Positions 1 through 50,545 of a DNA stretch of 64,000 bases are shown piece by piece. The position numbers and the translations under genes were made by a program. The DNA lies in NCBI GenBank assembly GCA_011032825.1, contig JAADJZ010000011.1, positions 1,277,501 to 1,341,500 on the forward strand, in the 5' to 3' direction. Source of the stretch: Massariosphaeria phaeospora. Taxonomy: Eukaryota > Ascomycota > Dothideomycetes > Pleosporales. The notes below the pieces were generated by a model. It saw only the letters and a list, made by a program, of their open reading frames with translations, searched no databases and was not told the origin of the DNA. How positions within the stretch are numbered: position 1 is the first letter of the stretch; each line of letters starts with the position of its first letter.

Positions 1-298
1 ACTAATCGTACAAACCTATTTATTTTTCTCTAGTTATAATTGCTAAGCTCTAATAAAAAGCTATTGCCTAATTCTTTATTTTGCGTGAACTTATTAAGGA
101 TAGGCTTAGAATTAGGTAGTAATATGCCTGTAGCTCTAAAAGAGCTAAAAATAGTTAATTCTTTAAAGGAAGCTTTCTACGCATTCTAGAATAAAGAAAA
201 GAAATTGCCTTTAGTAATAGAAGCTAGGCTCTAGCTTCTATAAAGATATTCTAATAGCTTTGCTAAGTAAGCTGTTAATAGAAGCTTAAACATTGCTA

Positions 299-3173: not shown

Positions 3174-5309
3174 CTAGGTATGCCCGTGCGCACCGTGCCC
3201 GGAGTCGGCCTGTGCCCCAAAAACAACATGCTTACTACTACAAACATGAGTTTATTGCAACAGCCACAATAGCTATTATTGCGAGATTTTTTGCTAGAGT
3301 AATTGAGATAAGGCTTTTGTACAGCTTGTATTATCTATATTTAGATAGAACGTTGATAGCGCGGCCGCGGCTGTTTACTCTGGGTGGAGCAGCTGATGCA
3401 GCTTCAAGCGACGCCGCGCGAGCTGCACTACTACCCGTACGTTTCTAACGCTTATCCTTAGGTAAGAATGCTCGTAAGGCTTTGCGCTTGCCTGTTTAGG
3501 ACGTTTGTAGAGCCTTTTTAGTGTTCTGAGCTTCAATCTTGCGTGCGCGCTTAGCTGCTTTCTTGGCTCTTTTCTTCTTTTTAACTACTTTAGCTGCCTT
3601 CTGCGCTACGCGTTTCTTCTCGGCTTTAGTTTTACAGAGGAGTTTAGCTAAGGCTTGAAGCTCTTTTCGGTTAGCTCGCGCGAGCTTCTGCATATGCTTA
3701 TTTTTCTTTTTAACTTTCTTTCGAGCACGCGCCTTACAGACCTTGCTAGGTAACTACTACTTAGCTCTACTATAATACTCCTTGCGCTGCTGCAAATCTA
3801 GAGGTTTGCTATGCTTTTTATGCTTTTTCTTAGCTAATAGAGCCTTCCTTAAGCCACCGTTTTTGTGTTTAAAAAGCTCGTTCTAAACCTAAAAGTAGTG
3901 AACTGTGAGGCCAAGCTTCTTTGACTCTTTTGCGCTTTCATTCTTTACCGCAGGCCGTACGAGGCGATCTAGGTAACGCTAATTAGCATTCTTAAAAGCA
4001 GATACCTTACCTCTATCTATTTTATCTTTATTTGAAGCTTCTTAGGTGAAGCGTTTGAGTATAACGTCTAGATCTATAGGCCAAATACCAGTAGCTTCAA
4101 AAGACTTAAGAATAGTTTCTTTTTTGAACGAAGCTTGCCACGATCTCTAGAACAACGAGAAAAAGTTTTCTTTCTTGATTAGAACTAGCCCTTGGCTGCG
4201 CTGGATATAAGACAATAGCTCCTTGCCGTAAGAGTTGAATAGAAGCTTGAACATAACGAAGTCGAGAAGTTAGAGCGTGTGAGTTGAGTAAAGAGAAAGT
4301 ATAGCTAAGAGTATTCAATTGCAGTTACAATAGTTAATAAACTCCATCGTTAGGTAGCTCCTATAGCTGTTAACAATAAGCAATTAGTAAGCTCGTCAAG
4401 CTTGCTTCTTTGTACAGCGATTAAACACTTGCTTAAGCTATGCCAATCTAACGTCGTTGTTGCTTTAACTAGAGAGAGTTGAGGTAACAAAGACGTTGTG
4501 TTTTTTAGCTTTAATACTAGCTACCTATGTCGATTGTAGTGTCTTTGATGCGCTCTTATAAATAAGGCTAGGGCCGCTAGGCAGCAACAACGTCCTATCT
4601 GCGCAAACTGCTGCTACAAGAGTTATCTACTTACGTAAGCTATTCTAGCGGGCTGCTTTTACCTCCTTTTTCTTTTATAAACGTTGAGAGAACACTCGTT
4701 TTAAGCAGCTAATTACACTAATTATAAACTTCTTTTCATCTATATTGTACGTTTGCTTAGGCTGAACGTTGTACTCCTTTATTTTCTTATGCAAGAGGTT
4801 AAAGTATAGCTTGTACTTATTCTCTAAGTTAGCTGCGTAGCGGTTAGAGTCCATAGCAGCTGTCTATTTTGAGATGAGATCGCCTTGGTTTCGGTGAAAG
4901 AAGCGCGTGACCTAGCTGTTAGAAACGAGTAATTTGGCTATCTTAGACTTAAAATTTTGCACTATATCTCTTGTAGGAGGTAGCTTTTGCTTTGTTAAGC
5001 CTACGATATACCGCACATGCTCTAACTCTTGTTGTAGGCTGAGTTTCTAGTGCGACGCGTTCCTAGCGTCCTAGGAAGCTGTCACGCCCCTCCACCTTCG
5101 CCCTAGCGTCGAGCGGTTGACGCTATATTGATCAGCAACCTGTTGGAGGGTATATTTTGCGCCTGGTTCGCGCGAGTTCAAATCTTCAATCGCCTTGTCG
5201 ATCGGATCCATGGTGGTTGAGTAGTCGCGTGTTGAAAAAGGTGAGTTGGGACGCGAGTTTGTTGTTGCGGGGCACGGGCCGACTCCGGGCACGGTGCGCA
5301 CGGGCACAG
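3174..5309 (-). mobile_element. Element C: RIP-degraded pogo-like transposon
   Basis: Inverted termini share TGCCCGTGCGCACCGTGCCC and the following GGAGTCGGCC. The outermost few bases differ (left end somewhere in 3174-3181, right end 5309), with TA on both sides. It abuts element B on the left with only a TA between, and lies 23 bp from element D on the right. Length is about 2.13 kb, as for elements F, H and J. Confidence 0.85.
3331..5211 (-). pseudogene. Pogo-like transposase of element C, heavily mutated
   Basis: The frame begins at the ATG at 5211 with a Psq-type helix-turn-helix (KYTLQQVADQYSVNRSTLGRR). It carries a CENP-B-like and a DDE core with many nonsense codons, and ends in a Lys/Ala-rich coiled coil and a NSRGRAINV tail at 3331 that matches the C terminus of element F. 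Two open stretches survive (4106-4318 and 3496-3693). No active product is possible. The call rests on collinearity with the better preserved copies F and H. Confidence 0.85.
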
Positions 5310-5332
5310 TACCGGTACCGGTACCGTACTTA
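5310..5332. repeat. Short GGTACC tandem spacer between elements C and D
   Basis: The 23 bp between the two transposon ends consist of ACCGGTACC repeats between two TA dinucleotides. This is either a relic of a target site or a tiny tandem duplication. Nothing coding. Confidence 0.6.
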
Positions 5333-6168
5333 AGCGAAACTTGGCAACCGTCCGAACTCATCTCAAATATCAACACCATGTATTCAAAGCGACTCAACTT
5401 TATCAATACGCACCCAAAATTCACGAATAATGGTTCGAATTAATCGCAGAAAGTCGTTCGATTATTTTACCGTGCAACAACGAAGAAATAAGACCCGGCG
5501 CCGCGAGCTTGACCCTATCGAGCGAGCGTTTGTGGCCGGCCCATGCCTCCATGGCAATGCCTCCGTAAATAGCTGCGCCAAACTACTCGGTGTGGATCAA
5601 TCTAGGTTATCAAAGATGGTCAAGAAGTTGCAGAGCAAGGCAGAGGAATCTAGGCTTCCTGTTTATGATCCAATTCACTTTGAAAATGAGATAGGAAGAG
5701 GTAGGCCAGAATTGCTCACTCAGGCACAAAAAGATTCTATCGTTCAGATAGCCACACAAGATCGTCAACACCGTGAAAAAGTGTCCTGGCAGGCAATAAA
5801 AGACGGAGACTTCAATCATATACCTAAGATCTCGATTACAACGTTCGAAAACGTTATGTACGAAGCTAGCTACGCACGCAGAGCACCTGGGTTCAAACCT
5901 ACACTAAATAAGAAGCAGCAAAAGAACTGCCTACAGTGGGCTCTTGATCACAACTCTGATAAGTACGAAAGAGGAGATAGTAAAGGCTTCAACTTTCAAC
6001 GCGTAGTTTACACCGATGAGACCCCTGCAAGAGTTGGAGAGCAACGCGGCATAAAAAGAGCTTGGTGTAAACCTAGAGAGGAGTATCACGACGACGTCAA
6101 GAGGCTCAAGCTTCGTAATACATGTACGTTGCAGTTCTACGGCGCATTTACGTACGGCGAGAAGGGCC

Positions 6169-7311
6169 CAGCGTTTTGCATGGAGGGAGTTCCGTGAGCT
6201 CTCTCCATACTCCCTCCATCCACAATCTCCATGGAGAGGCTATATATATCGCTTGGCTATACTAACTTGTATGGGAGTAGGATATCCGCAAGCGTATAGC
6301 TTAAATACACGGTGTATATCAAGATGGAGCGGCAGGATCACGTGCCTCCAAAGTCAACTATCCATGAACGCCTTGATTGCTCTAAGTACACTGTATAGTA
6401 GCTGTTTTCTGCTTCTAGCTAGCTTCGCCCATCACCCAAGATTCCGCAAATAGTACTCTGCTAGCCTCAATCTCATCATCGTCGTCGCCACCGTTGATCA
6501 AGAGCTCTGCCTGGGTGGCAACGTCGGCGTCGTCCCCTCCGCGCAAAGTTTCGCCATGGTTGCCAATGACTATGAGGCCAGAATTGCCCCAATTTTGTAG
6601 GCAAAGGCACCCCTCTAGTGTACTCTCTTTCATGTTTGAGCGCCGAGGCGATAGAGTTATCCCCCCTTTGCTGAAAATCCTCTCTGGCTCAGAGCTCATA
6701 GCGGGAATCGATAGTATATCGATAGCCATACGTGAGAGGCGTGGGTACAGTGCCTTGATAGCTGATCGTCTCCAATATCAGCGCAGTTGTATCCCAATTG
6801 ACCTAGGAGTAATTGAAGGGCGCCTGAAAAACAGGCTGCGCGTTAAGTAGGACCTCCAAACTATCACTGTTTGTTTGCTGGAACTGCGTAGGTACGGGGA
6901 CGTCCGCGGAATCGAGTTCGGTGAGATCGCTCGTAGATTCGTCATCGTGGATAACCATCGGCTGGCTACTGGATAGGGGTCCATCGTCGCGCGCACGCTT
7001 AGCAGGCGTACGAGGAGGCTTATTATTGCGTCGTTTCGTCATACTATCAATATCAAAGACAGTAGCCAATTTGGTGGTGGATTGATGAAGCAGTGATGAG
7101 ATTTGGCAGATGCGGCGGGTGCGGGGGATGTCATGACGTTCAGACGCTATATGCCGAGACTCGGCGAAATACAATCACATTTGGATCACGGCTACGGGAC
7201 TTCCTATTTAGGTAAGACGGCTAGATTACTAAGCTCTATTCACTCCATGGAGTGGCTCCAGAGTATATGGAGATACTCCAGAGCACTCCGTTCCCTCCAT
7301 GCAAACCGCTG
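6169..7311 (-). mobile_element. Internally deleted hAT element nested in element D
   Basis: A perfect 8-bp target duplication GAAGGGCC (6161-6168 and 7312-7319) flanks imperfect 20-bp inverted repeats starting CAGCG(T/G)TTTGCATGGAGGGA. Both features are diagnostic of hAT transposons. At 1143 bp it is far shorter than an autonomous hAT element, and its coding parts join an N-terminal piece to the C-terminal dimerisation region, so the middle with the catalytic core is missing. Confidence 0.93.
6415..7174 (-). pseudogene. hAT transposase remnant: N-terminal piece and C-terminal dimerisation domain only
   Basis: Two open stretches on the minus strand. 7174-6803 holds a basic, Ser/Asp-rich N-terminal region. 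6729-6415 holds the hAT C-terminal dimerisation motif, recognisable from IPAMSSEPERIFSKGG followed by an Arg-Arg, a conserved Cys and LQNW. They lie in different frames, and the RNase-H-like catalytic region expected between them is absent. The element cannot move itself but could be mobilised in trans because its ends are intact. Confidence 0.85.
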
Positions 7312-8148
7312 GAAGGGCCCGTGCCATATATACAGCAAAGAAACTAAGAAGCAGAAGGCGGCGGCAGCCAAAGCGCTACGAGATGAGAATGCAGAGAATC
7401 AGGCACAGAGAGAGAACCTTGTGCCACTTGCTCGGCGCGTTTTACGCTCCATGGGAGACTCAGATGTCAACTCTCAGAAACACGCCTAGCGAAAAGATCT
7501 CGAGTATAAACGAGGTGACAGGACCCGCGAGGGTGTAGACAGCTATAGGCACCGCGAGGAGGTGCTAAAGCCTCTCATAGTGCCTTAGATCAAGCAACTC
7601 AAACAGAAGGGCAAAACTAACGTCGTACTCTTGGAGGACGGTGCCCCGGCCCACGCCTCAAAGATAGCCATGGATTTTCTAGACGTCTCTCACATCTCAA
7701 AGCTACCTTGGCCTGGCCACTCACCCGACGTCAACGCAGAGTAGCATGCATGGCCATGGATTCGGCGTCATATAACGAAGGAGTACTCTCTGTCAACCTG
7801 CGAAAACGAGTGCCGTATACAGTAGCAAGAGGAGTGGCAAAAACTGCCCATAGAGGCAATCAACAAGTGGATTGACTATGTGCCTGAGATTGTACGCCGT
7901 ATTATTGAACATGAAGGCAATAACGACTTTCATGATGGATAGAGGGGGGGGGGGTAGTCACGGGTAACTAGTATCTCGCGGAGAGAGCTCCCAAAACACC
8001 AAATCTTGGCCTCATCCTTTCCCAATTGGGCCAATATATCCAGGTTATCGAGATCTCACAGATATATCATGAATAAATGTGCATTTAACCGATTTTGTAT
8101 GTAAATTAGTATAATGGGGGGGTTTTGGGTGCATGCCAAGTTTTCGCT

Positions 8149-8613
8149 TAGGACACACTAAAAACGAGCTCCTCGTACTGAACGCTAGGTATAGAATAGA
8201 TAAGTGGGCTGACAGCTAAGAAACTTAACACCATGTTTGCTACACAATTGTCCTAATTAGGAATCAAGCCCATCAAGCCCATCAAGCCGGCCGAAAGCCC
8301 CATAAAACACCAATCCGGCCGGCCTCAGGCCAAAAGCCGGCTGGCTGGATTGTTGACATCTCTGGCAACAGGTCAGATACAACTGCGGCAGGCAAGCGCT
8401 CACCAGACTCTAAGGTCTTATGCTTGAAGAGGACATTTGCTACAAACTCCCATCCCTGCAAACTGGGAAATCGACATTATAGCACACCAACCCAATCTGG
8501 AAAGCAAAAAGTGTCGAGATTGGATCAACAATCAGGGGGCGCGCAAGAAACCGTCCGATGAGTACGCGGTCGTCGAACATCCCTCCATACAGCCCACAAC
8601 AACATATCGCCCG
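8149..8613. other. Intergenic: AA9 3' flank and GC-rich palindromic stretch
   Basis: No gene seen. At 8262-8340 there is a triple CCCATCAAG repeat and nested CCGGCCGG palindromes, possibly the end of an unidentified small repeat. Poly-G runs at 7943 and 8116 lie just outside, within the 3' end of element D. Confidence 0.5.
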
Positions 8614-10057
8614 CTAACGGTCCCAATGCGGCGGATAATCCTGAACCAGCGTCTCGCCGTCCCAGAGCGGGCCTCCGGGATAGGTATACTTGTTTGGCAA
8701 GTCTTCGTATTTACTTGTCATGCCTATACCACGCGCCCGTTAGCTTCAAAACAGGCCTCTCCCTTCAAGACAAAAAGAACACGTACCGGGCTGGTCCATC
8801 TGGAGGTTTTCGGGTATCTTGATCCCCTTTGGAAGATCGCCCGTGGTATCGCTAACCACTTCTATCTGCGCGCATGCGGGGAAGAGTTGCGGGGCCGTAT
8901 TGTATTGGGAATTGCCGTAATATACTTGATCGACGCGGACTAGGTATTTGCCTGCGGGCGTCTGTTTCGGGATGGTAGAGATGAACTGGTATTCTGTTAT
9001 TAGCCCCTCTCATTTTCATCTAACACCGTTTGCTCGACCAAACACGGGAGAAGAGAAGGATTAGCAGGGACTTACACGCGGCGCCTCCTTCCCGTCATTG
9101 TGGGGCAACCAGAACACGGGATTCGCCAGCTCCTTGCGGATTTCGATGCCGAGTGTATAAATCTTAACCCATTCACCGCTGCCGTCGTAGGTGCGGAGAT
9201 CTTGCCCTGCTGGCGCGCGCGAGAGATGCATCATCACAGGGCCTTCGTGGACGATGAGGTTGACTGGACCCATCTTTATGTTCCGTTCACAATTAGCCAG
9301 CGCTTTACTCATCCACTCATGGTCACCATGTCAACTGCCAAGGGCGGTCTTCATGTATGCTCAAGGGAAAAGAACGGGGGCGAATGGTTAAGGACGGCTT
9401 ACCTCGCTGGTATCGTTCGTGCACACGCCCTTGTCTCCGGGACAGTTATCCCACTGCACACGGTCCGGATCGTCCCAACTATTCGGGTATAAAGCGGGGG
9501 TTAGGACAAGGAACTCGATTGTGTCGCCGGGCTTGACCTGCAGGGTTTCCGTAGCACCGGCCCAGGCCATGTTGTCACGGCCGCAGCGGACGCTTTCGAC
9601 CGATGCGTTCGAGTAGACGGGGTAAGCCCATATGATAGGGTTCATTTCCGAGCCGGCGCCGGTCTCGTTGTACGGGGCTGTGTTGTTACTGTTCTTGTTA
9701 GGAGGGATGGAAAGGGGGATTAAGATTACGACCGCGCCGTTTCCTACTGCTGCTGCTGCTAGCAGTAAGAGAAAGGGGAGTATTGTTGAGAGTTGTGAAG
9801 TTGGTAACGATGGAGAAGACAAGGTTCCGAGCAGAGTTCTATGGAGGATGAGGGCAAGGAGGTTACTTACCGTATGTACTGGAGAGGGCGCTGCCATACG
9901 CCGTTGTGGGCGATGCGAACAAAGGTATCTTGTTAGGTTTTGTTAGTATGATGGGAGAGGGGGAAAGGGGGAGTTGTGGGCAGGGTGTATGTTTACTGTG
10001 AGCATGTGCCAAGGAAGCTGCGGCCACGAGCGTAGCCAAGGTGGGTAGAGAGAACAT
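8614..10057 (-). CDS. AA9-family lytic polysaccharide monooxygenase, non-canonical active site
   Basis: Secreted copper enzyme of the AA9 (former GH61) family, which oxidatively cleaves cellulose or related glucans outside the cell. Proposed exons on the minus strand: 10057-9997, 9928-9871, 9688-9403, 9273-9076, 8985-8787, 8723-8614, all with GT-AG introns, giving about 303 aa (intron 4 has an alternative donor/acceptor pair). Residues 1-19 form a signal peptide ending AHA, so the mature protein starts with His20, the copper-binding His. The second copper His is His144 in HEGPV. The YDGSGEWVKIY and AGKYLVR...FPACAQ blocks are typical of the family. Oddities: the axial Tyr of the QxY motif is Phe236, and the conserved His in the preceding loop (usually ...LH..) is missing. 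There is no CBM. The family is certain; activity is not. Confidence 0.9.
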
Positions 10058-10495: not shown

Positions 10496-12625
10496 CCGTG
10501 TCCGTGCGCGTAACAGGCCACGTCGCGTAACGGGCCACGAACAACATGTTCACCACTATAAAGATGAGGTAATTGTAACAGCTATAATAGCTCTTTTAAA
10601 AAGATTTTTTGGTAGAGAGACTCGTAATATGCTCGTGGACAATCTGCACTATCTATATTTGCGTGGAACGTTGATAGTGCGGCCACGAGAGTTGACTTTA
10701 GGTGGAGTAGCTGGTGCAGCTTCTGGGGACGTCGCGACAGCTGTAGAGCTGCCACCGCGTCTCTGTCGCTTGCCCTTTGCTGGAGGCCCTTCTGAAGCTT
10801 TACGCTTACCCGTTTGGGCAGTTGTAGATGCTCTCTTAGTGTTTTGGGCTTCAATTCTGGCCGCGCGAGCAGCTGCCTGTTCGGCCTTTAGCTGATCTCT
10901 CACCACTTTGGCTCTCTCTCTCGCTACGCGTCTCTCCTCAGCCTTTTGCTCTCGGAGGAGCTTAGCAGCAGCTTGAAGCTCCTTTCTGTTCGCCTTTGCA
11001 AGCTGCTCCTTATGCTCTTGGTGTTGTACTACTGCCTCACGTGCACGTGCCTCCCTAATCTTGCGCGGTGACTAGAAGACAGCACCACCGTGGTACTCTT
11101 TGCGCTGCTGCAAGTCGAGAGGTTTGCCGCGCTTCTTGTGCCTCCTCTTAACGGTGAGAGCTTCTCTCAGGCCGTTGTTCTCATGGTGTAGCAGCTCATT
11201 TTGAGCTGCGAGTGAGTGGAGCGTTTGAGAGAGCGTCTTAGAGTCCTCTGCGGTAGTATCCCTCACTGTAGAGCGTACGAGACGCTCCATGTGACGCCAG
11301 CCGCTCTCTTTAAGTGCTAGGGGACCTGCTTCACCTCCTCTATGCTCGCTGGAGCTCTCTCTCTCGAAGCGTTTGAGTACAGCCTCTGGCTCCATGGGCC
11401 ATATGCCAGTAGCTTCAAAAGACTTAAAGATCGTCTCTGTCGTGAAGGCAGACTGCCAGGCACTCCAGAATAGTGGGAAGAAGTCTCCCTTCGTGACTGG
11501 GATGAGCCCTTGGCTCCTTTGGAGGTAGCTAGAGAGCTCCTTTGAGTAGCTGCTTGAGAGAGGCTTGAAACAAACAACATCGAGTGGCTGAAGCGTGTGA
11601 GTAGAGTGAGGGGGAAACACAGCTAGGAGTATACGATGGGAGTCGCAGTAGTCGATAAAGTCCTTCGTGAGGTGACTGCCATGGCCGTCAAGTATAAGGA
11701 GACGCTAGTTCCTCCCGCGACGCGCTTTCTGCTTCGTACAGCGATCGAATACCTGCTCTAGCCACGCCAATCCAATGTCGTTGTTCGTCCATCCTGACGG
11801 AGATGAAGCCACAAAGACGTCGTGTTGCCTAGCTTCAATAGCGGCCACCCATGAGGCCTGCAGTGAGCTGTTCGCTGACTGGTGGATAAGGCCGGGCGAG
11901 AGAGCACTCCCATCTGCGCAGACGGCTGCTAGGAGGGTGATCCACTCACGAGAGCCATCTTGAAGAGCTGTAGTGACCTCCCTACGCTCCCACATCTGAC
12001 GGCTGAACACTCGTTTAGAGCGGCTGAGTACACCGATCATGAAGCCCTTCTCATCCATATTGTATATATGGTGAGGCTCTAAGTTGTACTGAATAATTTT
12101 AGAGTGTAGCAGCTTCAAGTACGCTTCGTACTTGTCTTTAGAGTCAGCTTTGTGGCGTGTAGCGTCCATCCCAAGAGTGTATTTCGAAGTAAGGTGCTCA
12201 TGGTTTCGGCTTAAGAAGCGCGTAACCCAGGCATTAGAGGCGCTCTTAGAGCAGATCTCAGAGGCGAAATTTCGTATTATTTCTCTTGTAGGTGGTAGCC
12301 CTCGCTTTGTTAAGCCTCTAATATATTCTACAAGCTCGTACTCTTGTTGTGGGCTGAGGAGTAGTTGATCGCGATGTTTGGCTTCCTGTGGGCGCTGACG
12401 ACCTTGGTGTCTTTGAGTCAACGTAGTCTTTGGTACACCGAACTGACGAGCAATTGCGCGGTACGAAAAGTGTTCTTCTGGTTCTAGCGAATTGATTGCT
12501 GCAATCGCATCATCAATTGGAGCCATAGTGGTAGAGTTACGACGCGTTAAAGTTGGTGGCTTGTCTGGTGTTTTGATGTTCGTGGCCCGTTACGCGACGT
12601 GGCCTGTTACGCGCACGGACACGGT
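10496..12625 (-). mobile_element. Element F: nearly intact 2.13-kb pogo-like transposon
   Basis: TA duplications at 10494-10495 and 12626-12627. The inverted repeats of 48-49 bp begin CCGTGTCCGTGCGCGTAACA and differ by a single-base indel. Each TIR contains a near-tandem duplication of GCGTAAC(A/G)GG-CCAC. It lies between the AA9 gene and the hydrolase, away from the other repeats, and is the least decayed element of the window. Confidence 0.95.
10649..12526 (-). pseudogene. Pogo-like transposase of element F with only two TAG stops
   Basis: A single 626-codon frame from the ATG at 12526 to the TAG at 10649. It is interrupted only by TAG codons at 11705-11707 and 11072-11074. Domains: Psq-type HTH (SYRAIARQFGVPKTTLTQR), CENP-B-type HTH, first Asp in IYNMDEKGFM, second Asp in LLILDGH just after the first stop, third Asp in LQPLDVVCF, then a Lys/Ala/Glu-rich coiled coil. 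Comparison with element H suggests both stops replace Trp or Tyr-like codons; the second replaces a Trp (TGG to TAG). Readthrough or a functional sister copy elsewhere cannot be excluded. Confidence 0.92.
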
Positions 12626-22270: not shown

Positions 22271-24330
22271 ATGGCGCCACCACCATCAGAACCAGATGCT
22301 CCCACGACTAGCCTGAATACCGTAGTATCCCAGATGGAGCATTTGTCCGCTTCAGAAGAAATTGCAGAAGAGGCCATACGGATAGATGTGGAGGAAGACT
22401 CGTCTGAGCCTGTTTCTAGTGACGACGACGCCTCATCGGTGGGCTCATCGGCTCCTCGCCAATATTCTATGATGAACTCCTACCGCCGGCCATCATACGT
22501 GAACCCAGGATCTCGATCAACAGCCATCTTCTCGTCAAGCGTACCGACTGAGCACAACTATTTGTCAAAGAGAGAACGCGCTGCTGTCCGAGAAGAGGAG
22601 CGAAGCTTACTACGAGATAATGACCTTCTCCCACCGAAACACCCCCGACGAGGGAGCGAGGGAGCAGACGCTGCAGGAGCGGCTAAGAGACTCTCTCTAT
22701 CTGCTTTGCGCAAAGTACGGAGTTCTTCAGATGAAGAGGCTGCAACGAACACTGAACCATCGGAACGAACCGCTCTCTTGGAAGGGAACCCTGATCTCCC
22801 ATATGGCGGTCTGGATAGCCCCAAAACTATCAACAAGAGATGGGGTGAGGGCGTCAGAGATGGGAAGATACATACAACATGGCAGCGAGAAGCAAAACAT
22901 CTGACTAAAACGTCTGCTCCCTTGATATTGACTTTCCTATTACAGTATTCGCTTCCCGTGGCAAGTATCTTCACTGTTGGACATATTGGGAAAGTTGAAC
23001 TTGGTGCAGTCAGTTTGGCTAGCAGTGAGTTGTTGCGTGTAGGACTGAGGAACAGAGCTAACAAGCTTCAGTGACTGCAGCCATTACTGGCTATGCTGTA
23101 TACCAAGGCCTAGCCACGTCACTTGATACCCTCTGTGCACAAGCGTATGGATCCGGACGGCCGCATCTTGTGGGTCTCCAGTTACAGCGAACGGTCTACT
23201 TCCTGTGGCTTATCACAATCCCCATATCGCTGGTCTGGGCCTTCGGACCACAGCTCCTGTCTGCGATTGTGCCAGACCAGGAAACAGCCAAGCTTGCCGG
23301 ACTCTACCTGAGGATCCTCATCGCTGGTGCTCCGGGGTACGCCGCTTTCGAGGCAGGGAAACGGTACTTACAAGCCCAGGGCCTCTTCAGCGCCACCATG
23401 TACATCCTGCTCATCTGCGCGCCCCTGAACGCGCTCATGAACTACCTCTTCGTCTGGCGCCTGCAATGGGGCTTCATCGGCGCCCCAATCGCCGTATCCA
23501 TCACCGAGAACATCCTCCCGCTCCTCCTCTTCCTCTACGTGCGCTTCATCGACGGCCACCAATGCTGGGGCGGCTTCGACCGCAAAGCGCTCTCCAACTG
23601 GACGCCCATGATGCAGCTCGCGCTGCCGGGCCTCGTCATGGTGCTCGCCGAGTTCCTGGCCTTCGAGATCCTCACCCTGTCGTCCAGCTGGCTGCCCGGC
23701 CGCACGCCGCTCGCTGCCCAGAGCATACTGGGCTCCATCACGGGCATCACGTTCCAGATCCCGTTCCCCATCAGCGTGGCCGCATCGACGCGCATCGCTA
23801 CTTACATCGGCGCGACGCTCGCGCAGCCTGCGAAGACGGCCGCGAAGGTCGCTATGGTGTTCGCGGTGTTCGTCGGCTTCTTCAATTTCGCGCTGCTGGC
23901 GCTGCTGCGCGATAGCATTCCACGGCTGTTCACACAGGACGAAGATGTCATACGCATGGTGTCGGATCTGCTGCCGCTGTGCGCCGCGTTCCAGCTGTTC
24001 GATGCGCTGGCCGCGAATTGTAATGGCATTTTGCGCGGGCTCGGGCGCCAGGAAGTGGGCGGGTATGTTGGGTTGTTTGCGTATTATGCCGTCGGGCTGC
24101 CGATTAGTTTTGGCACGGGGTTTGGGGCTGGGTGGGGGCTGTATGGGCTTTGGAGTGTGAGTTTTCGCAGGATGATGCTACTGGAGAGTGGTGGGTTGCT
24201 TGCTGACTGTGAGGTGTAGGGACCGGCGATTGCGCTCGTTTTTGTGGCGGGGATTGAGGGGTGGTTTATTTGGCGGACGAGTTGGGAGAGGGCGGTTAGG
24301 GAGGCGGAGAGGAGGAATGGTATGGGTTAG
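22271..24330 (+). CDS. MATE-family multidrug/toxin extrusion transporter
   Basis: 649 aa from three exons: 22271-23024, 23072-24156 and 24220-24330, with 47- and 63-bp introns. A cytosolic Ser-rich N-terminal tail of about 200 residues, with an ERTALL dileucine signal, precedes about twelve membrane helices. Family blocks include TSAPLILTFLLQYSLP, the first-helix substrate pocket, GLATSLDTLCAQAYGSG and GILRGLGRQEVGGYV. The layout resembles yeast vacuolar ERC1-type MATE proteins. Family function: cation- or proton-coupled antiport of organic cations. The ATG at 22271 is the first in frame. Confidence 0.93.
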
Positions 24331-24670
24331 GGGGGGGGGGGACGGGTGAGTATTTCGGTCGAATTTCTACACAGGTTTGAGATGCTTTAGATGATCTTGG
24401 GGCCAACATTTTCCTGGCGCTGGCGTTGTGGTCGTTCACATGGTCGGTCTGGTTTGCTACACGAAGCGTTGCGTAGACTTGATATCCTCAACGTCTTTTC
24501 TCGCGTCTTGCATTGCTTGCTTGATTTTTTCGGGGTTCTTTCGTTTGGTGCGTATCATCTTCATCATCACTACGTCTCCCTCACCACCACCATCACCACC
24601 ACCGCTCCACGGCCCCATCCCACCCCCGACTTCTCGCTTTCCACATGACCCCAATTTCAACCCGAGCACC

Positions 24671-24755
24671 TATATAAGTCCCCTCCCTCACACGCCAACT
24701 CTTCTTTCTCTTTCTCTACACAGCACTCGATGCGCGCATCAAGTGTCTACTAAAA
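24671..24755 (+). promoter_or_regulatory. Array unit 1 core promoter
   Basis: TATATAAG at 24671, initiator-like CTACACAGCA at 24716, ACTAAAA at 24749. A 15-codon frame follows directly (MPSVQDYVWVGVVRL) but has no counterpart in other units. Confidence 0.7.
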
Positions 24756-24992
24756 TGCCATCCGTACAAGACTATGTCTGGGTTGGTGTGGTGCGGTTGT
24801 AAACTAGAAGTATATTTTGACCATGGGGAAGAGGTTGGGGATAGTGTCGAGTGGTGGTGGTGGGGTGATAGTAGTGATGATGAACAGCGCCATCGTTGGC
24901 GGACCTTGAAAAAGACTTGAGTGTTCGGTATGTATGTTTCACGAGGAGAAATCGTGGTGCTGGGTATAAGGCGCAAATACTAAATGGGCACA

Positions 24993-25114
24993 TATATAAG
25001 CCCCCCCATTTCTTTGTCCTTCCCCTTCTTCCTTACACTGCACTCCAGATCTACCCATTCTGTGGGTTTAAAATTGGATCTGAGACTCGCGAATGTTGTG
25101 TGGGCGACTGAAAT
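24993..25114 (+). promoter_or_regulatory. Array unit 2 core promoter
   Basis: TATATAAG at 24993, TTACACTGCA at 25033, TTTAAAA near 25067 and a TGTGTGGGCGACTGAAA block ending at 25113. Confidence 0.7.
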
Positions 25115-25343
25115 CACATGACATACCTCAACATGGGAGTTTGCCGGCAGATTTCTGAAAAGGTGGAATAAAAGGCACGTGGGCGGCGATCGATGTTGCG
25201 CTTGCGGTGGGAAGATTAGTGGGATTTTGGGGTGCTGGAGAAAAGATTTGGTTGGGACGCTGATGGGTTGGGTGGCCCAGGGTGGGGAAGAGCGGGTTTG
25301 AGGGAGGTGGAGGTGTTTCGATATGGGGTGCGTGGTAGCATGG

Positions 25344-25476
25344 TGATGCGCATCATCGTCTGCTGGCGACGACGCTGTCATCGACGGGAAGGGAGGTGGG
25401 TATATAAGCCCCTCTCCTCTCTTGTCTCCCTGTCTTCGTTCTTTACACTGCGACTGTTCTGTGTGTGGGACTAAAA
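25344..25476 (+). promoter_or_regulatory. Array unit 3 core promoter with palindrome
   Basis: Perfect palindrome TGATGCGCATCA at 25344-25355, TATATAAG at 25401, TTACACTGCG at 25443, TGTGGGACTAAAA ending at 25476. Confidence 0.75.
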
Positions 25477-25673
25477 GAAAGCAATGATCATGTTATGTTG
25501 CTGGCAGACGAAGACTTGGACTTTGGCGCGAAAAGAGGGAGAAAGAAGTTGTGAGCCGTGGGATTGTGCAGTGGATAAGATCATAGGTGATGTGATGGTG
25601 TGTCTGGAACGGGGTTATCGGAAAGCTGGGAAGATAACGGGGAGTGGATTAAGATTGGTTGAGGAGTGGTGGT

Positions 25674-25808
25674 GATGACGCGCATCATCGAGGCCGCATC
25701 TCTTGCGAGGATTAAGGGCCTGGGGTAGGTAGGTATATAAGTCCCTCTTTGCCTCCCCATCTTGGTTCTATACACTGTACTGCAGGTGTTCTGTTTTTGC
25801 GACTAAAA
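25674..25808 (+). promoter_or_regulatory. Array unit 4 core promoter with palindrome
   Basis: GATGACGCGCATCATC at 25674-25689, TATATAAG at 25734, ATACACTGTA at 25770, GCGACTAAAA ending at 25808. A hAT MITE interrupts the unit downstream. Confidence 0.75.
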
Positions 25809-25839
25809 AGTACAGGACGGAATAGCATGTTGTCTGGCG

Positions 25840-26183
25840 TAGGGTTTGACATGGGCGGATTTCCAAAACGCGCCCATCCGCCCACCTCCGCCCGCGGACT
25901 GTGGATTTATTCTGTGGGCGCCCATTGTAGGGCATTTAAGTAGAGCTAGCTACCTTTAGTTTAATTGATCGTCTCCCCGCGTCTCCCCATGGTTTCGAGT
26001 GGAGATGTGGGGCCTTAGCGCTATCTCGCTAGAACGTCATCTCTCCCCCCTTAGTGACCGCATCCAGATGTATTACCCATACAAGTTAGTATGGAGCATG
26101 GCACATTGCTTGGCCTCCATGGAAATCTCTGGGTTTGCCCATGGGCGAATGGAGGAATTCCAGATCGCCCATGTCAAACACTG
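25840..26183. mobile_element. 344-bp hAT-type MITE inserted in array unit 4
   Basis: An 8-bp duplication GTCTGGCG (25832-25839 and 26184-26191) flanks inverted ends TAGGGTTTGACATGGGCGG (left) and CAGTGTTTGACATGGGCGAT (right, reverse complement). Non-coding. The right terminus starts CAGTG as in many hAT elements. Its removal restores the array spacing to 297 bp. Confidence 0.85.
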
Positions 26184-26327
26184 GTCTGGCGGACGAAAAA
26201 CGAAGTGGAAAATGTGCAATGGCTGAGAGAGCGGCGGGGGAGCGGGAAAAGAATGTGTGAATAGGGGATGGGTAGTTAAGCGGGGAAGGACAAGAGCTAG
26301 TGTTGGCACAGGGCGAGGGGACGGTGG

Positions 26328-26456
26328 TGATGCGCATCATCAACTGTATGCGCTCTCGCGTACCAAGCTCGCTGTCCGGGTACGTATAGAAGTCCCTCTT
26401 CCGCTACTCCTGTTCTTCTTTCTGTACACACCACCTCTACCATGGGTATAAAAAAA
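26328..26456 (+). promoter_or_regulatory. Array unit 5 core promoter, degenerate TATA
   Basis: Perfect palindrome TGATGCGCATCA at 26328-26339. The TATA box is reduced to CGTATAGAAG at 26383. GTACACACCA at 26424 and an A-rich block at 26448. Confidence 0.65.
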
Positions 26457-26652
26457 TTCGCAATACGTTTGAGACATGGGGTGCGGGAGCCGAAAGGGTT
26501 GGCAATATGATGTTACGTGTCGGAGCGGGGCTAGGATGCGGTCGTTATACAGCCCTAAAAAGGACAAATCCAGAAGATGGTGGTTTGGGTGGAAAGAACT
26601 TTCGGCATGGGCGGATGCTGGATCGCCTGAATGATGGATTCAGAGTGGCGAG

Positions 26653-26778
26653 GATGACCATCACGGCGTCTGTCGCACACCTCGGAGGTTCACCAAAGAC
26701 TTCAGGGTGACTATATAAGCTCCTCTCACCTCTATCCCTTCGTTTTTCTACACTATACCTCGCCGGCCAGTTAAAAAA
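26653..26778 (+). promoter_or_regulatory. Array unit 6 core promoter
   Basis: Degenerate palindrome GATGACCATCA at 26653, TATATAAG at 26712, CTACACTATA at 26748, TTAAAAAA at 26771. Confidence 0.7.
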
Positions 26779-26957
26779 GCGGCAGGGTGTACAATCATAG
26801 CGAGTGCGCAACCAAAAATTAAAAAGCATCTGTTTCATGGAGGTGGAGCGAAGTGTGCGACAAGGACCTACATGGGATATTAAAACCTACTGACGACGAA
26901 TACATGGAGTGTTTTGGAGTCTGGAAGCCTTGTCGCGAGAAAATAGTTTGTTGATAG

Positions 26958-27078
26958 GTGATGATGTGTATCATCACTCCCGGTAACGCCCACTTTCGAA
27001 TGAGGATATATAAGCCCCTGATACTCTTCCATCTCTCTTACTTCTTCACAGCACGTCGATTGTACGTTTGATTAAAAA
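26958..27078 (+). promoter_or_regulatory. Array unit 7 core promoter with palindrome
   Basis: GTGATGATGTGTATCATCAC at 26958-26977, TATATAAG at 27007, CTTCACAGCA at 27044, TTAAAAA at 27072. Confidence 0.72.
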
Positions 27079-27436
27079 GTTGAGGAACTCTGGCATATGT
27101 GGTGTGGGTGGTGGCGAACTAAAACTGCTGCGAGGCCTGGATCATGGAGTGTGAGGTTGTCGCGGTGAGTGCAAGCAGTGCGTAGGGAATTGAGGATTGA
27201 ACTGAGGTTGTATTATCTAGAAGCTACGGAGTTTGTAGGTGCGAAAGCACAGACAGCGCTAGTCCTAGATAAGCGTAGTACCCTTATCCATCTCATAGGG
27301 TAAGAGCTATAAACCGTGACAGAGGTTGAGCAAGAGAGTTGTAAAAAATACTTCGATTTGATGTTCATGTCGTGCGCTGGAAAGATCGAGATGCGCCGTA
27401 TAGGTGTTCATGATTCGGGGAGGAAGAGATTGATGG

Positions 27437-27586
27437 CGATGCGTATCATTGTTTGTCTAAAAATACTGTCTGGACGATCCCGTGGGTATATAAGCACTCC
27501 TCACGCCGGACGCTTCCCTTTCTTCTCGCTACACAGCAATTTCAAATTGGAGCGACTGCTACCAAATGGAGTGTGCGACTATAAAT
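27437..27586 (+). promoter_or_regulatory. Array unit 8 core promoter
   Basis: CGATGCGTATCA at 27437, TATATAAG at 27487, CTACACAGCA at 27529, TGTGCGACTATAAA ending at 27585. Confidence 0.72.
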
Positions 27587-28002
27587 CGTCGCCGAACCTA
27601 ATTATGGGGCTTCTGTTCAGACTGTTCTACGCGGAGAAAAGAGTGATCACTGCCTAAATTCTTCGAGCTCGAGCTCATGGCTTTGTCTGAAAGAAACAAT
27701 TATCACCACCTGTAACTGCGTGAGCAGTGTCAATTGGGTGCTGCGGATCAACGCTTGTATTGCTATCTGTTGTCGTGTTGTGATCTAGGTGTACAGGAGC
27801 TCTCGGCTCAGAGGTAAGTGCACTTGCCCAACGGGCAGTGCCTGCTATAATAAGATATCATGTGATCCAGCCTACGTAGTTACACCACCGATGTATGAAT
27901 GCCTGGAAGTAGCATTGCTAGTCAGACCTGAAGAAAAGCTTTGATAATACTAGTTATGATTACTTCCACAAAAGAGGGATATCAGGATCGATGTGATCGC
28001 GG

Positions 28003-28110
28003 TATATAAGTCTCTCTCCTACGTGGTCCTCTCTCTTTCTTCATACGAAACCTTCTGTGGTAATAATGAAAGATACATTCAAAAGCATGATGTTGCGCGC
28101 TGGACTAAAA
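28003..28110 (+). promoter_or_regulatory. Array unit 9 core promoter, weak initiator
   Basis: TATATAAG at 28003, a pyrimidine tract, a poor initiator match (TCATACGAAA at 28041), and GCGCTGGACTAAAA ending at 28110. No clear palindrome upstream. Confidence 0.6.
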
Positions 28111-28294
28111 GTCAAGATGTCAGCCACATGGATTGGGATTGGGCGTGGCCGTGTGAATGAACACGGTACATGCTTGAAAATGCAAATACTAAATGCCGTG
28201 TTGGTGTTTGGGTTGACGATGCGCAAGGAAGCAACGCTATGTTAGCCGGTATCGAAACTTGTGAAGCGTCCGGGGGGAGTAATAGTTGTGGTGG

Positions 28295-28392
28295 TGATGT
28301 TCATCGTCAGTTAGATTCAATGACACAGCGTGATGCTCCGAAGTCGGTATATAAGCCCCTCGCACGTCTCCCTTTCTCTCTTCTTCAGCACT
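28295..28392 (+). promoter_or_regulatory. Array unit 10 core promoter
   Basis: TGATGTTCATCG at 28295, TATATAAG at 28348, CTTCAGCACT at 28383, with a TTGTGCGGGTAGCCAAAAA block further on near 28440. Confidence 0.68.
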
Positions 28393-28661
28393 ATCTTTTT
28401 GCGCAAAGGATGAAAAATGGAACAAGACACCTACTATGTTGTGCGGGTAGCCAAAAACCAACATTTACAACTGATGAAAGGCACAGGATCTGGCATGATA
28501 ATGTGTATTGGAAGGCGTGTGAGAGCCTTTACGAGGCTCTCAGAGGCTGCCAAGGCACTAGCTACACGCGATCACGTGAGAGATATCAGTGGACTATCGG
28601 CTCCGTCCAACAACAACGCACTATCGAAGAGGCCTTTTGATGAGTGTAGTAGAGTAGTGTT

Positions 28662-28804
28662 GAGCATCATCACTTTATTTGAACATGTTGTTGTTACTTA
28701 GATGTGCGTATATAAGCCTCTTTTTTCTCCCTCTTTCTTCTTCTTTCTTCGCCGTGGTACACGCGGTTGGCTCCACAGCTAGTATGTCGATTGAGGAATT
28801 AAAA
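28662..28804 (+). promoter_or_regulatory. Array unit 11 core promoter
   Basis: Half palindrome GAGCATCATCAC at 28662, TATATAAG at 28709, a long TTC-rich tract, GTACACGCGG at 28757, ATTAAAA at 28798. Confidence 0.68.
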
Positions 28805-29050
28805 TGTTAAGGTACCAATGCATGGGATCCGAGTAGAGGGGAAGATGAAAGAGTTTATGAACCATTCAACGGGACGGGACCTATGGAGATTCGAGCGGTC
28901 TTTCGGTGTCTTGAGAGATGTAAGCGGCTTGGGTTCGGATTGTGCGGCGGGGATTCGTCGTGATCTCAATAGACAGTGTTGTGTTGGTGGGAAATGTACG
29001 TATCCAATGCCTGGAAATGTGTAGAGAAGGTCCACATAGTGCGAGAAGGC

Positions 29051-29115
29051 ACATAAGCCTCTTGTCCCTACTTTTCTTTCCCAACTTTACACAGCAGATC
29101 TACTCTCTCTAAAAG
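29051..29115 (+). promoter_or_regulatory. Array unit 12 core promoter, degenerate TATA
   Basis: ACATAAG at 29051 in place of TATATAAG, TTACACAGCA at 29087, CTAAAAG at 29109. Last recognisable unit. Confidence 0.62.
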
Positions 29116-29434
29116 AAACAATAGAACGGAGTCTTAAAGTAGATGCATAGGAGATTTTCGTCTGCTTCAAAACCCCAAGACGGCATATCGATTTTAGAAA
29201 GTAGAAATCTTTTGTCTTTCAAGTCTGCTTCTCGTACAAGGCATCTAGTTGAACAACATAATAACCAAAGCACTATCTGGCGACTGAAGGTGTCCCATAG
29301 CGAAGGGAAAGGTCGAATAGAACATTTATCGCAGCAGCTCCCACGCAGAGCCAGACACCTCTGACTAGTACCAAGCATCGCTTCCAAGTATGTGTAAGCC
29401 ACATGATTGTTTCAAGGGCGAGGAGCAGCCCACC

Positions 29435-48406: not shown

Positions 48407-50545
48407 CCGAGGTTGGCCAGCCGATGAGCCAGGGCGGCCGACGAGCCACCCCAACATCACAACACCAACCTTACGCCAAACTTCCACACGCGATAACTCC
48501 ACCAATATGACAGCTATTGAGGATGCGATTGCGGAAATCGAATCTCGCGAAGAAGGCGCATCTTTTTCGTATAGAAAAGTAGCCAATCAGTTCGCTGTCA
48601 ATAGAACCACATTGTCGCGCCGCCATCAAGGCAAAACGTCCTCCAATGCAGGAGAAGCACAACAACGCGCCCACCTCAGCCCCCAACAAGAGCATGAGCT
48701 TGTAATTTATTTACAAGGCTTAACAGAGCGTAGGCTACCTCCAACCCGGACAATGATAAAAAATATGGCCTCTAAGGTGGCCAAAACCCAGGTCTCTGAG
48801 CGCTAGGTTACACGCTTTTTGGACCGCAATTCCGCCCATCTTACCAGCAAATGGACTACCGGAATCGATCGCAATCGTCACAAGGCTGACTCTAAGGCAA
48901 GATACTGCAAGTATTTTGAACTTATCCATGGGAAGATGCGGGAGTACGACGTTGAGGCCGAGAATGTGTACAATATGGATGAAAAAGGCTTCCTACTCGG
49001 CACTACAGCGCGCTCAAAACGCGTGTTTAGTAAGAGACTTTGGCAGCAAAAGAGGACAAGGCAGGCGCTTCAAGATAGCTCAAGAAAATGGATTACCGTT
49101 CTGGCTTGCGTGTGCGCAGATGGGTCAAGTTTGCCGCCAGGCATCATTTTTGAGGGCAAGAGCGGCATTCAAAACACCTGGTTACAGGACGTACAAGTCG
49201 GTAAACACGACGCCTTTTTCGGACACTCAGCCTCAGGATGGAGCAATAATGACCTTGGTTTGGCGTGGCTTGAACAGGTGTTTGAGCGTACAACAAGGAA
49301 GAAAGCGCGGCGGAGATACCGCCTGCTCATCCTTGATGGCCACGCCAGCCACCTTACTATGGATTTTATTAATTTCTGCGACAGCCAAAAGATTCTCCTT
49401 GCTGTGTTCCCCCCTTATGCAACGCATAGTTTTCAACCTCTAGATGTAGTGTTGTTTGCGCCTCTTTCAAATTCATACTCTAAGGAACTTGAACAATTCA
49501 TTCACCAAAGCCAGGGCCTATTAGCACTCAAAAAAGCGACTTTTTCCCGTTGTTCTGGGCCGCCTGGAGGTCCTCCTTTAAGGAAGCAACTATACTCAAA
49601 AGCTTTGAGGCAACAGGCATTTTCCCGATAAATGCAGAAGTCATCCTCCAACGCTTCAACAACTACACTTCTAGTGAAGATAGCGACTCTAGCTTGGATT
49701 CAAAGGGAGATAACAGTAGCTAGAGAGATCTCCGAAAAGTATTTAACGCTGCAGTGTCAAATGTGGCGGCAAAGTCGTCGCAGAAGTTAGGGCGCGCACT
49801 GCATTCTCTGCAGGTACAGAATGAGCTTCTCAACTACGAAAATCAAGGCCTACGCGCTACAGTTGAAAGCAAAAAAGCGCGTAAGACGAAAGGCAAGGTC
49901 CTTGACCTTTAACAACGCAAAGAGTTTCATAGTGGTGCGATGTTCTGGTCTCCAAGAAAGGTACGAGAAGCCAATGCGCAAGAGACAGTAAAACAACGCC
50001 TTGAAGAGAAAGAAAAACTCCAAAAATCTCGCAATAAAGAGCTTAAAGCAGCTGCTGCCTTGTACAAAAAAAAGCAACAAGCAGATAAAAAGGTAGCTAG
50101 AGAGGAGGCTAAAATAGTGAAGAATGCAGAGAAGGCAGCGAAGGCAGAACAACTTGCTGCAGCTAAGGCGCAAAAACAACAGGAACGCAACGCTCTTAAC
50201 GCCTAAAATTCTCTACAATTATCCCAAAGAGGCAAAAGGCCAGCCTCACAAAAGGCTGCATTAAAATCCAAAAGGCAGCGTAGTGCAGCTTGTGTGCAAG
50301 AGGTTGCTAAGGCTGCACTAGCTGCTCTACTAGCACCACTAACACAGTTACGAACACGAACAATTAAGAGGCTAAATAGATATTCTGTATAGACCAAAAG
50401 TTTTATATTAACCTGTTTACTACTCTACTGTAAAATCTCGTGATAATAGCTATCGTAGGTAGTGCTGCAGCTTTACTTTTATTAGTAATAATTTGGAATA
50501 GAGTGGCTCGTCGGCTGCCTTGGCTTATCGGCTAGCTAACCTCGG
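48407..50545 (+). mobile_element. Element H: 2.14-kb pogo-like transposon nested in G1
   Basis: TA duplications at 48405-48406 and 50546-50547. The TIRs of about 42 bp start CCGAGGTT(G/A)G; the right copy shows C-to-T changes relative to the left. Each TIR carries GCCGA(T/C)GAGCCA twice. The uninterrupted target sequence is visible in G2 near 52.59 kb. Confidence 0.92.
48507..50392 (+). pseudogene. Pogo-like transposase of element H, three stops and one frameshift
   Basis: The frame opens at the ATG at 48507 with a Psq-type HTH (SYRKVANQFAVNRTTLSRR). TAG at 48804, then open to about 49546, where a one-base loss in a T run shifts the frame. The shifted frame carries on through TAG near 49721 and TAA near 49909 to the end at 50390. 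Catalytic Asps: YNMDEKGF, LLILDGHAS, FQPLDVVLF. A long Lys/Glu/Ala coiled coil (49950-50206) precedes the basic C terminus. A Trp in FWSPRK is intact here where element F has a stop. Confidence 0.9.

What the first reader, a model, noticed from the sequence alone, without database searches (positions are those of the whole stretch)
24540..29135. Head-to-tail array of about twelve TATA/initiator units with no reading frame
The units share five blocks in fixed order (palindrome, TATATAAG, pyrimidine tract, YTACACWGCA, GCGACTAAAA-like), but the DNA between has diverged and no ORF is conserved. A fixed 50-60 bp palindrome-to-TATA distance in most units and a 35-48 bp TATA-to-initiator distance look like preserved promoter geometry rather than random tandem decay. 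I know of no described fungal locus of this kind. Possible meanings: a battery of short non-coding transcripts, a cluster of tiny RNA genes, or a promoter decoy sink for one regulator.
Basis: partly seen in the sequence, partly recalled or inferred. Interest (0 to 1): 0.87.

Follow-up and report, generated by a model that had tools for sequence, protein, structure and literature searches.

The report
Fungal arrays of tiny non-coding genes
A fungus carries many tandem clusters of very short, apparently non-coding gene-like units, each with promoter-like signals and a conserved frame around a changeable stretch of about 18 letters, a layout that was not found described and that may be a variable-insert RNA system.

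Summary
A profile of the unit finds 12 units, all on the + strand at 24671-29123; its only other hits in the 64 kb (E<=1) are two weak module hits inside the array. The array is not alone: TATATAAGY9 occurs 123 times in this 42-Mb Pleosporales-like genome against 4 for the reversed control, and 14 other loci gave 149 hits of the profile; rough total 330. Where an ATG follows the A-run (CTAAAA) in range, it starts 17-19 nt after the run's end in 103 of 115 units, and later A-runs repeat the spacing. Genome-wide, promoter plus this spacing gives 74 hits; spacing shifted by 10 gives 2. The ATG does not behave as a start codon. In several sister units the blocks on both sides match while the first spacer is unrelated (best pair: flanks 0.97/0.93, spacer 2 of 18); one pair shares its spacer. 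Best reading: tandem families of short RNA polymerase II non-coding RNA genes with a conserved scaffold and a replaceable insert. Transcription, processing and targets are untested.

The parts
24671..24782 (+). Unit 1: TATATAAG 24671, pyrimidine tract, TACACAGCA, CTAAAA 24750, 18-nt spacer, ATG 24774
   Evidence: R1 42.3 bits; anchors
24993..25102 (+). Unit 2: TATA, TACACTGCA, TTAAAA 25068, spacer, ATG 25093
   Evidence: R1 44.9 bits
25401..25503 (+). Unit 3: TATA, TACACTGCG, CTAAAA 25471, spacer, ATG 25495; upstream palindrome ATGGTGATGCGCATCATCG 25340-25358
   Evidence: R1 48 bits; repeat family D2
25734..25836 (+). Unit 4: TATA, TACACTGTA, CTAAAA 25803, spacer, ATG 25827; the block after the ATG is interrupted by the insert
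   Evidence: R1 42.8 bits
25840..26183 (.). 344-bp insert with inverted ends (17 nt, 94% complementary; TAGGGTTTGACATGGGCG...) and 8-bp target duplication GTCTGGCG (25832-25839 / 26184-26191); MITE-like, hAT-type by duplication length (inference)
   Evidence: inverted repeat I10; duplication check
26385..26481 (+). Unit 5: variant TATAGAAG, TACACACCA, A-run from 26450, ATG 26476
   Evidence: R1 23.3 bits
26712..26776 (+). Unit 6: TATA, TACACTATA, TTAAAA 26771; no ATG at the ruler position; a weak module hit further down at 26872-26912
   Evidence: R1 19.5 bits at 26712-26765 and 8.3 bits
27007..27106 (+). Unit 7: TATA, TTCACAGCA, TTAAAA 27072, spacer, ATG 27097; second module at 27110-27152 (CTAAAA - N19 - ATG)
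   Evidence: R1 32.7 and 8.0 bits
27487..27557 (+). Unit 8: TATA, TACACAGCA; first A-run reduced to AAA
   Evidence: R1 18.5 bits; not anchored
28003..28055 (+). Unit 9: TATA and pyrimidine tract; downstream blocks degenerate
   Evidence: R1 15.2 bits
28348..28438 (+). Unit 10: TATA, CAGCACT, A-run from 28413, spacer, ATG 28436
   Evidence: R1 22.1 bits for 28348-28398, promoter part
28709..28826 (+). Unit 11: TATA, long pyrimidine tract, TTAAAA 28799, spacer, ATG 28822
   Evidence: R1 26.6 bits
29050..29123 (+). Unit 12: degenerate TATA (CACATAAG 29050), TACACAGCA, CTAAAA 29109; no ATG at the ruler position
   Evidence: R1 19.6 bits at 29053-29123

Best explanation
The array is one of many tandem clusters of short non-coding RNA genes. 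SHOWN from sequence: units have TATATAAGYCCC, a pyrimidine patch and an ACAC initiator-like block, many of them with a GATGATG/GCATCATC element upstream. Downstream lie bipartite modules, [Y]TAAAA - 18 +/- 1 nt - ATG plus a G/T-rich block, mostly one to three per unit, on the strand of the promoter. In several sister pairs the block before CTAAAA and the ATG block are alike while the first spacer is unrelated sequence of about the same length. INFERRED: RNA polymerase II makes a short (roughly 100-180 nt) RNA from each unit. A protein or complex reads the A-run and the AUG/GU-rich block and measures the distance between them. The first spacer is a replaceable insert held in a constant scaffold, as the specificity part of a guide-type RNA would be. 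Whether the insert is a guide, a small-RNA body or merely a free spacer is open.
For: Twelve units in the window and, at E<=1, nothing else beyond two weak module hits in the array. 149 model hits at E<=0.01 in 14 other loci, several in each. Promoter pattern 123 vs 4 reversed control; promoter+CTAAAA 31 vs 0; promoter+ruler 74 vs 0 (one promoter counted twice), and 2 vs 1 when the spacing is shifted by 10. Ruler: 87 of 98 strict units have ATG at +20..30 against 19.7 by shuffling; 17-19 nt from the A-run end in 103 of 115 units that have an ATG in range; later A-runs repeat it, 116 vs about 17 expected. The reverse strand of the units shows no peak, and the rest of the window no enrichment. 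Not coding. GC skew positive from about +20 to +140 after CTAAAA. Island of non-homology at spacer 1 in sister pairs, the five smallest P 3e-20, 2e-9, 4e-8, 3e-7, 6e-7. 14 Piwi-domain matches, read as about 9 loci, in the genome.
Against: No RNA data. No Rfam match. RNA structure is weak: the 26 nt before CTAAAA fold a little better than shuffles (mean z -0.59 over 136 related units), the ATG block does not (0.05), and only 1 of 11 arrays gave a consensus stem there, with one double change. Two full spacers have no other genomic match with <=2 mismatches except one 2-mismatch hit, while the reversed control of one gave 2; 13-mer matches elsewhere are about chance (8 of 179). One sister pair keeps its spacer (17 of 18). 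Over all same-array pairs, flank minus spacer-1 identity is +0.036 (array bootstrap -0.006 to 0.073) and spacer 2 minus spacer 1 is +0.056 (-0.005 to 0.088); only block-before-CTAAAA minus spacer 1 excludes zero. General acceleration of spacer 1 is thus not proven.
Confidence: 0.5

Rival explanations
1. DNA-level arrays: the units are binding platforms or promoter decoys that titrate one regulator or organise chromatin, and the A-run/ATG modules are two half-sites of a DNA-binding complex about two helical turns apart.
For: A shared upstream element is enriched over many arrays; 22-23 bp from A-run start to ATG in 86 of 115; no convincing RNA structure.
Against: Modules were found downstream of the initiator and on its strand, with no peak on the other strand; the pyrimidine patch and initiator are core-promoter features that a decoy does not need; the spacer turnover is not explained.
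Confidence: 0.2
2. Self-terminating promoters: each module is a poly(A)-type 3'-end signal (A-rich hexamer, about 18 nt, CA|UG cleavage site, GU-rich downstream element), so each unit fires and ends at once.
For: The order A-run, about 18 nt, (C)A, G/T-rich tract fits; modules come in series. The poly(A)-site layout is recalled.
Against: The module is not enriched elsewhere in the window, where ordinary gene ends lie; the whole triplet ATG sits at exactly +24 or +25 in 69 of 98 strict units, more than a bare YA dinucleotide needs; the narrow ruler is tighter than such sites as recalled.
Confidence: 0.12
3. Genes for very short peptides starting at the conserved ATG.
For: ATG at a constant place about 50 nt after the initiator; similar peptide starts within some arrays, and few frame-0 stops in L007, L040 and L042 (0, 1 and 1).
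Against: Stops in the 9 codons after ATG 31/43/37 in frames 0/1/2 over 129 units; of 132 same-array pairs with unequal block length 31 differ by a multiple of 3; ORF length from 1 codon, 10% above 50, 19 of 129 at most 5; ATG1-ATG2 distance in frame in 17 of 61.
Confidence: 0.06
4. Neutral remains of tandem duplications (minisatellite-like decay) with chance motif retention.
For: Upstream DNA of same-array units is close to background identity (0.573 vs 0.553).
Against: The same motifs and spacing at many unlinked loci, 74 against 0 and 2 in controls; Tandem Repeats Finder lists no array at 24.5-29.1 kb.
Confidence: 0.04

Closest known systems
CRISPR arrays (repeat - constant-length spacer)
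   Same: Block alternating with spacers of nearly constant length and unrelated sequence; blocks differ from array to array; a promoter at one end.
   Different: Eukaryote; blocks are degenerate, not identical; mostly one to three modules per promoter; only the first spacer looks replaceable; no cas search made; no source for spacers found.
Box C/D and H/ACA guide RNA clusters
   Same: Scaffold boxes at fixed spacing around a variable stretch; tandem copies.
   Different: No Rfam match; no C/D or H/ACA boxes recognised by me (by eye, not by a dedicated search); an estimated few hundred units.
Fungal milRNA / small-RNA loci
   Same: 22-23 nt from A-run start to ATG is small-RNA size; the genome has several Argonaute-like genes.
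   Different: No hairpin precursor around the spacer; no small-RNA data.
Tandem RNA gene arrays (spliced-leader, snRNA, 5S)
   Same: Head-to-tail units of a few hundred bp, each with its own promoter.
   Different: Those are near-identical copies (recalled); here units share mainly short blocks and the spacing.

Membership tests
Any curated Rfam family | Covariance-model score above the gathering threshold | tested here: not met
   0 matches in 64 kb; at E<=5 one hit far below its threshold in 24200-29400
CRISPR array | Near-identical repeats with unique spacers of constant length | tested here: not met
   Spacer length nearly constant, but blocks are degenerate: same-array identity of the ATG block averages 0.61 against 0.55 background
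CRISPR array | cas genes / acquisition of spacers from foreign DNA | not tested
   Two spacers searched in own genome only
Hairpin-type miRNA/milRNA precursor | Stable hairpin containing the mature sequence | tested here: not met
   30 nt after CTAAAA z -0.01; spacer alone 0.05; CTAAAA-30..+60 z -0.33
Small protein genes | Stop-free, frame-conserved reading frame from the ATG | tested here: not met
RNA polymerase II promoters of fungi | TATA box, pyrimidine-rich patch, initiator in order | tested here: met
   the consensus layout of fungal promoters is recalled
RNA polymerase II promoters of fungi | Measured transcription start | not testable with these tools
   no transcript data held
Poly(A) site | A-rich hexamer, 10-30 nt, YA cleavage site, GU/U-rich downstream element, present at ordinary gene ends (recalled) | tested here: inconclusive
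   Layout fits, but module not enriched in the rest of the window
Tandem satellite/minisatellite | Recognisable tandem period | tested here: not met
   No row for 24.5-29.1 kb in Tandem Repeats Finder

The most novel reading that the evidence does not exclude
A genome-encoded, eukaryotic variable-insert RNA system: several hundred promoter-driven RNA genes in many arrays, each holding an insert of about 18 nt at fixed length between constant recognition blocks, with inserts exchanged wholesale between sister genes, used as guides for silencing or targeting with the organism's several Argonaute-like proteins.
Probability: 0.13. Interest if true: 0.97.

Novelty: categorically new. Interest (0 to 1): 0.8.

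Why it matters
If the units are transcribed, this is a large, so far unrecognised class of fungal genes that annotation by reading frame would miss. A 17-19 nt ruler with free sequence between fixed motifs implies a dedicated recognition or processing machine. Wholesale replacement of a constant-length insert between sister genes would be unusual in a eukaryote. One small-RNA and one capped-RNA library would decide most of it.

Tried and rejected
Rfam at both thresholds: nothing. tRNA: none. Strong RNA hairpin before CTAAAA: only weak average support, no clear covariation. Pairing of the spacer with neighbours: the apparent signal can be an effect of block shuffling, so I do not use it. Peptide genes: rejected. 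Spacer targets: 13-mers about chance (the two longest matches there, about 16 and 15 nt, lie in DNA I did not annotate); two full spacers, no clear target; antisense matches to other arrays: 50 sites against 40 and 49 for reversed and complemented spacers, and these include 19 of one low-complexity spacer and self-matches of L007, held on both strands; 60 joined spacers as a DNA query found not even themselves, so that search says nothing. Viral contigs: 78 stretches with one pattern match each, taken as chance and not read further. Relatives could not be searched: the tool holds none for this genome.
Full report
What was given. The window is G000:C3:1277501-1341500 of an unnamed 42.08-Mb genome in 51 contigs. 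A 1016-residue protein of the window is 64% identical to one of Melanomma pulvis-pyrius; the next named hits are fungi whose names I recall as Pleosporales, so the organism is taken as a member of that order.

The observation. TATATAAG occurs 11 times in the window against 1.9 expected, and 10 of these lie in the array on the + strand. An alignment of 76 units from many loci (6 from this window; selected for TATA, [CT]TAAAA and ATG and capped at 6 per locus, so those columns are conserved partly by selection) was made into a sequence-only model. On the window it reports 12 units, all on the + strand from 24671 to 29123, E at most 9e-4, plus two weak second-module hits inside the array, and nothing else at E<=1. 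Unit 4 is split by a 344-bp inverted-repeat insert with an 8-bp target duplication.

It is a genome-wide family. The pattern TATATAAGY9 has 123 places in the genome against 4 for the pattern read backwards (only the first places are listed there). TATATAAGCCCYY-N25-55-CTAAAA has 31 against 0. The promoter-plus-ruler pattern lies on 15 of 51 contigs, in 36 places more than 20 kb apart by my count; not all of these were checked to be arrays. Fourteen fetched loci (72,243 bases) gave 149 model hits at E<=0.01, several in each, where the strict TATATAAGY9 pattern finds 56; scaling 123 by 149/56 gives about 330 units. That is rough, because the loci were chosen by the pattern. At one locus (L007) two arrays run in opposite directions.

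The ruler. From 162 TATA-like sites in held sequence, 139 had a pyrimidine-rich stretch behind them. A wider set of 149 gave 136 that could be anchored on an A-run 50-92 nt after TATA, 13 not. Of the 98 with CTAAAA or TTAAAA, 87 have an ATG 20-30 nt after the first base, against a shuffled mean of 19.7 and maximum of 31. Measured from the end of the A-run the distance is 17, 18 or 19 in 103 of 115 (only units with an ATG 21-28 nt after the anchor enter this count, 21 of the 136 do not). Further downstream 201 A-runs show 116 ATGs at start distances 21-24, where about 17 are expected. Relative to CTAAAA, module ATGs in the 136 units peak at +20..29 (117), with a second group at +50..99 (105) and a third near +110 (15); the reverse strand shows no such peak. 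In the window's array 35 A-runs have 20 ATGs at 17-19 nt; the rest of the window has 14 for 523 A-runs, both strands. Genome-wide, promoter plus A-run plus N16-20 plus ATG has 74 places (one promoter counted twice) and 0 in the reversed control. The same pattern with N26-30 has 2, and 1 in its control. Base composition switches at the ATG from a slightly A/C-leaning spacer to a G/T-rich block and back to A-rich.

Not a start codon. Stops in the first codons are about as common in frame 0 as in the others (28/29/21 over codons 1-8 of 119 units; 31/43/37 over 9 codons of 129 units). Of 132 same-array pairs with unequal block length 31 differ by a multiple of three; 21 more pairs are equal. The first and second ATG are in frame in 17 of 61 units. 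Against this: in L007, L040 and L042 frame 0 is rather open (0, 1 and 1 stops).

Structure. The 26 nt before CTAAAA fold slightly better than dinucleotide shuffles (mean z -0.59, 136 related units; -0.49 for 30 nt); the other segments tested lie between -0.33 and 0.06. For 75 units with both blocks defined, z is -0.52 for the first block and 0.05 for the ATG block and for the spacer. Of 11 arrays aligned, RNAalifold gave a consensus stem in one only. A strong conserved RNA fold is therefore not shown.

The replaceable insert. Same-array pairs share the block before CTAAAA and the ATG block above background, while the first spacer has no excess identity: 0.004 (array bootstrap -0.03 to 0.031) against 0.093 for the block before CTAAAA, 0.196 for the ATG block, 0.061 for the second spacer and 0.02-0.05 for upstream 18-nt pieces. 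The differences flank minus first spacer (0.036, -0.006 to 0.073) and second minus first spacer (0.056, -0.005 to 0.088) do not exclude zero, so these averages are suggestive only. Single sister pairs are clearer. Among 178 modules, 25 same-array pairs have both flanks at least 60% identical without gaps. The five with the smallest P (coordinates along the array strand of each locus) are L043 3557/3915 (flanks 0.97/0.93, spacer 2 of 18), L042 4085/4383 (0.90/0.87, 5 of 18), L043 2417/2722 (0.93/0.67, 4 of 17), L007 4552/5065 (0.80/0.80, 3 of 16) and L042 8651/8972 (0.87/0.73, 5 of 18), with binomial P from 3e-20 to 6e-7. The last pair is also about 80% identical upstream of TATA. In most of the 25 pairs the spacer is near the random level; four are intermediate (0.44-0.56), and one pair, L044 609/920, keeps it at 17 of 18 with flanks of 0.70 and 0.93. 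The binomial test assumes that the spacer should change like its flanks, which are themselves conserved, so it shows an island of non-homology, not its cause. None of these pairs is from the window's own array, whose units have diverged further.

Targets. Nothing clear: 8 of 179 spacers share a 13-mer with another context in 221 kb held (overlaps included), about what I calculate for chance. Two spacers searched genome-wide with up to 2 mismatches found themselves and one 2-mismatch place; the reversed control of one found 2. The genome has 14 Piwi-domain matches that I read as about nine loci. That this is many for a filamentous ascomycete is from recall.

Interpretation. Order, strand and spacing of the elements, their recurrence at unlinked loci, the lack of a conserved reading frame and the positive GC skew over about 120 nt fit short RNA genes made from RNA polymerase II promoters. 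The ruler with free sequence implies one machine reading two motifs. The turnover of the first spacer fits an insert carrying specificity. These three sentences are inference. A DNA-level platform, or tandem poly(A)-type signals behind promoters, remain possible.

Prior knowledge. No matching family in Rfam. Nine paper searches (listings and abstract starts seen, no paper opened) listed no paper that by title or abstract start describes such arrays; subscription journals and preprints are mostly outside that library. Relatives could not be searched, so age and spread of the family are unknown.

Noticed in passing
window 25832-26191: 344-bp MITE-like insert (inverted ends TAGGGTTTGACATGGGCG, 8-bp duplication GTCTGGCG) inside unit 4 of the array.
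   Followed up: partly
window 23071-24219 (+): MATE-type transporter gene (MatE, E 8e-52) ends about 450 bp before the first unit.
   Followed up: partly
   Followed up: partly
window 11705-12526 (-) and 48819-49631 (+): Transposase fragments: Tc5-type DNA-binding plus DDE_1 in the first, DDE_1 in the second; the region 50-55 kb is AT-rich.
   Followed up: no
window 62092-62743: 148-bp tandem repeat, 4.4 copies, about 3.5 kb from the contig end.
   Followed up: no
G000 C4, C12, C15, C27, C30, C48: 14 Piwi-domain matches, about nine Argonaute-like loci, some with stops inside that may be introns or damage.
   Followed up: no
L007 (G000:C45:2016000-2025900): Two unit arrays run divergently at one locus (- strand 3484-5993, + strand 6124-8659).
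   Followed up: no
L044 609/920 (array strand): The only one of 25 sister pairs that keeps the first spacer (17 of 18), with flanks of 0.70 and 0.93.
   Followed up: no
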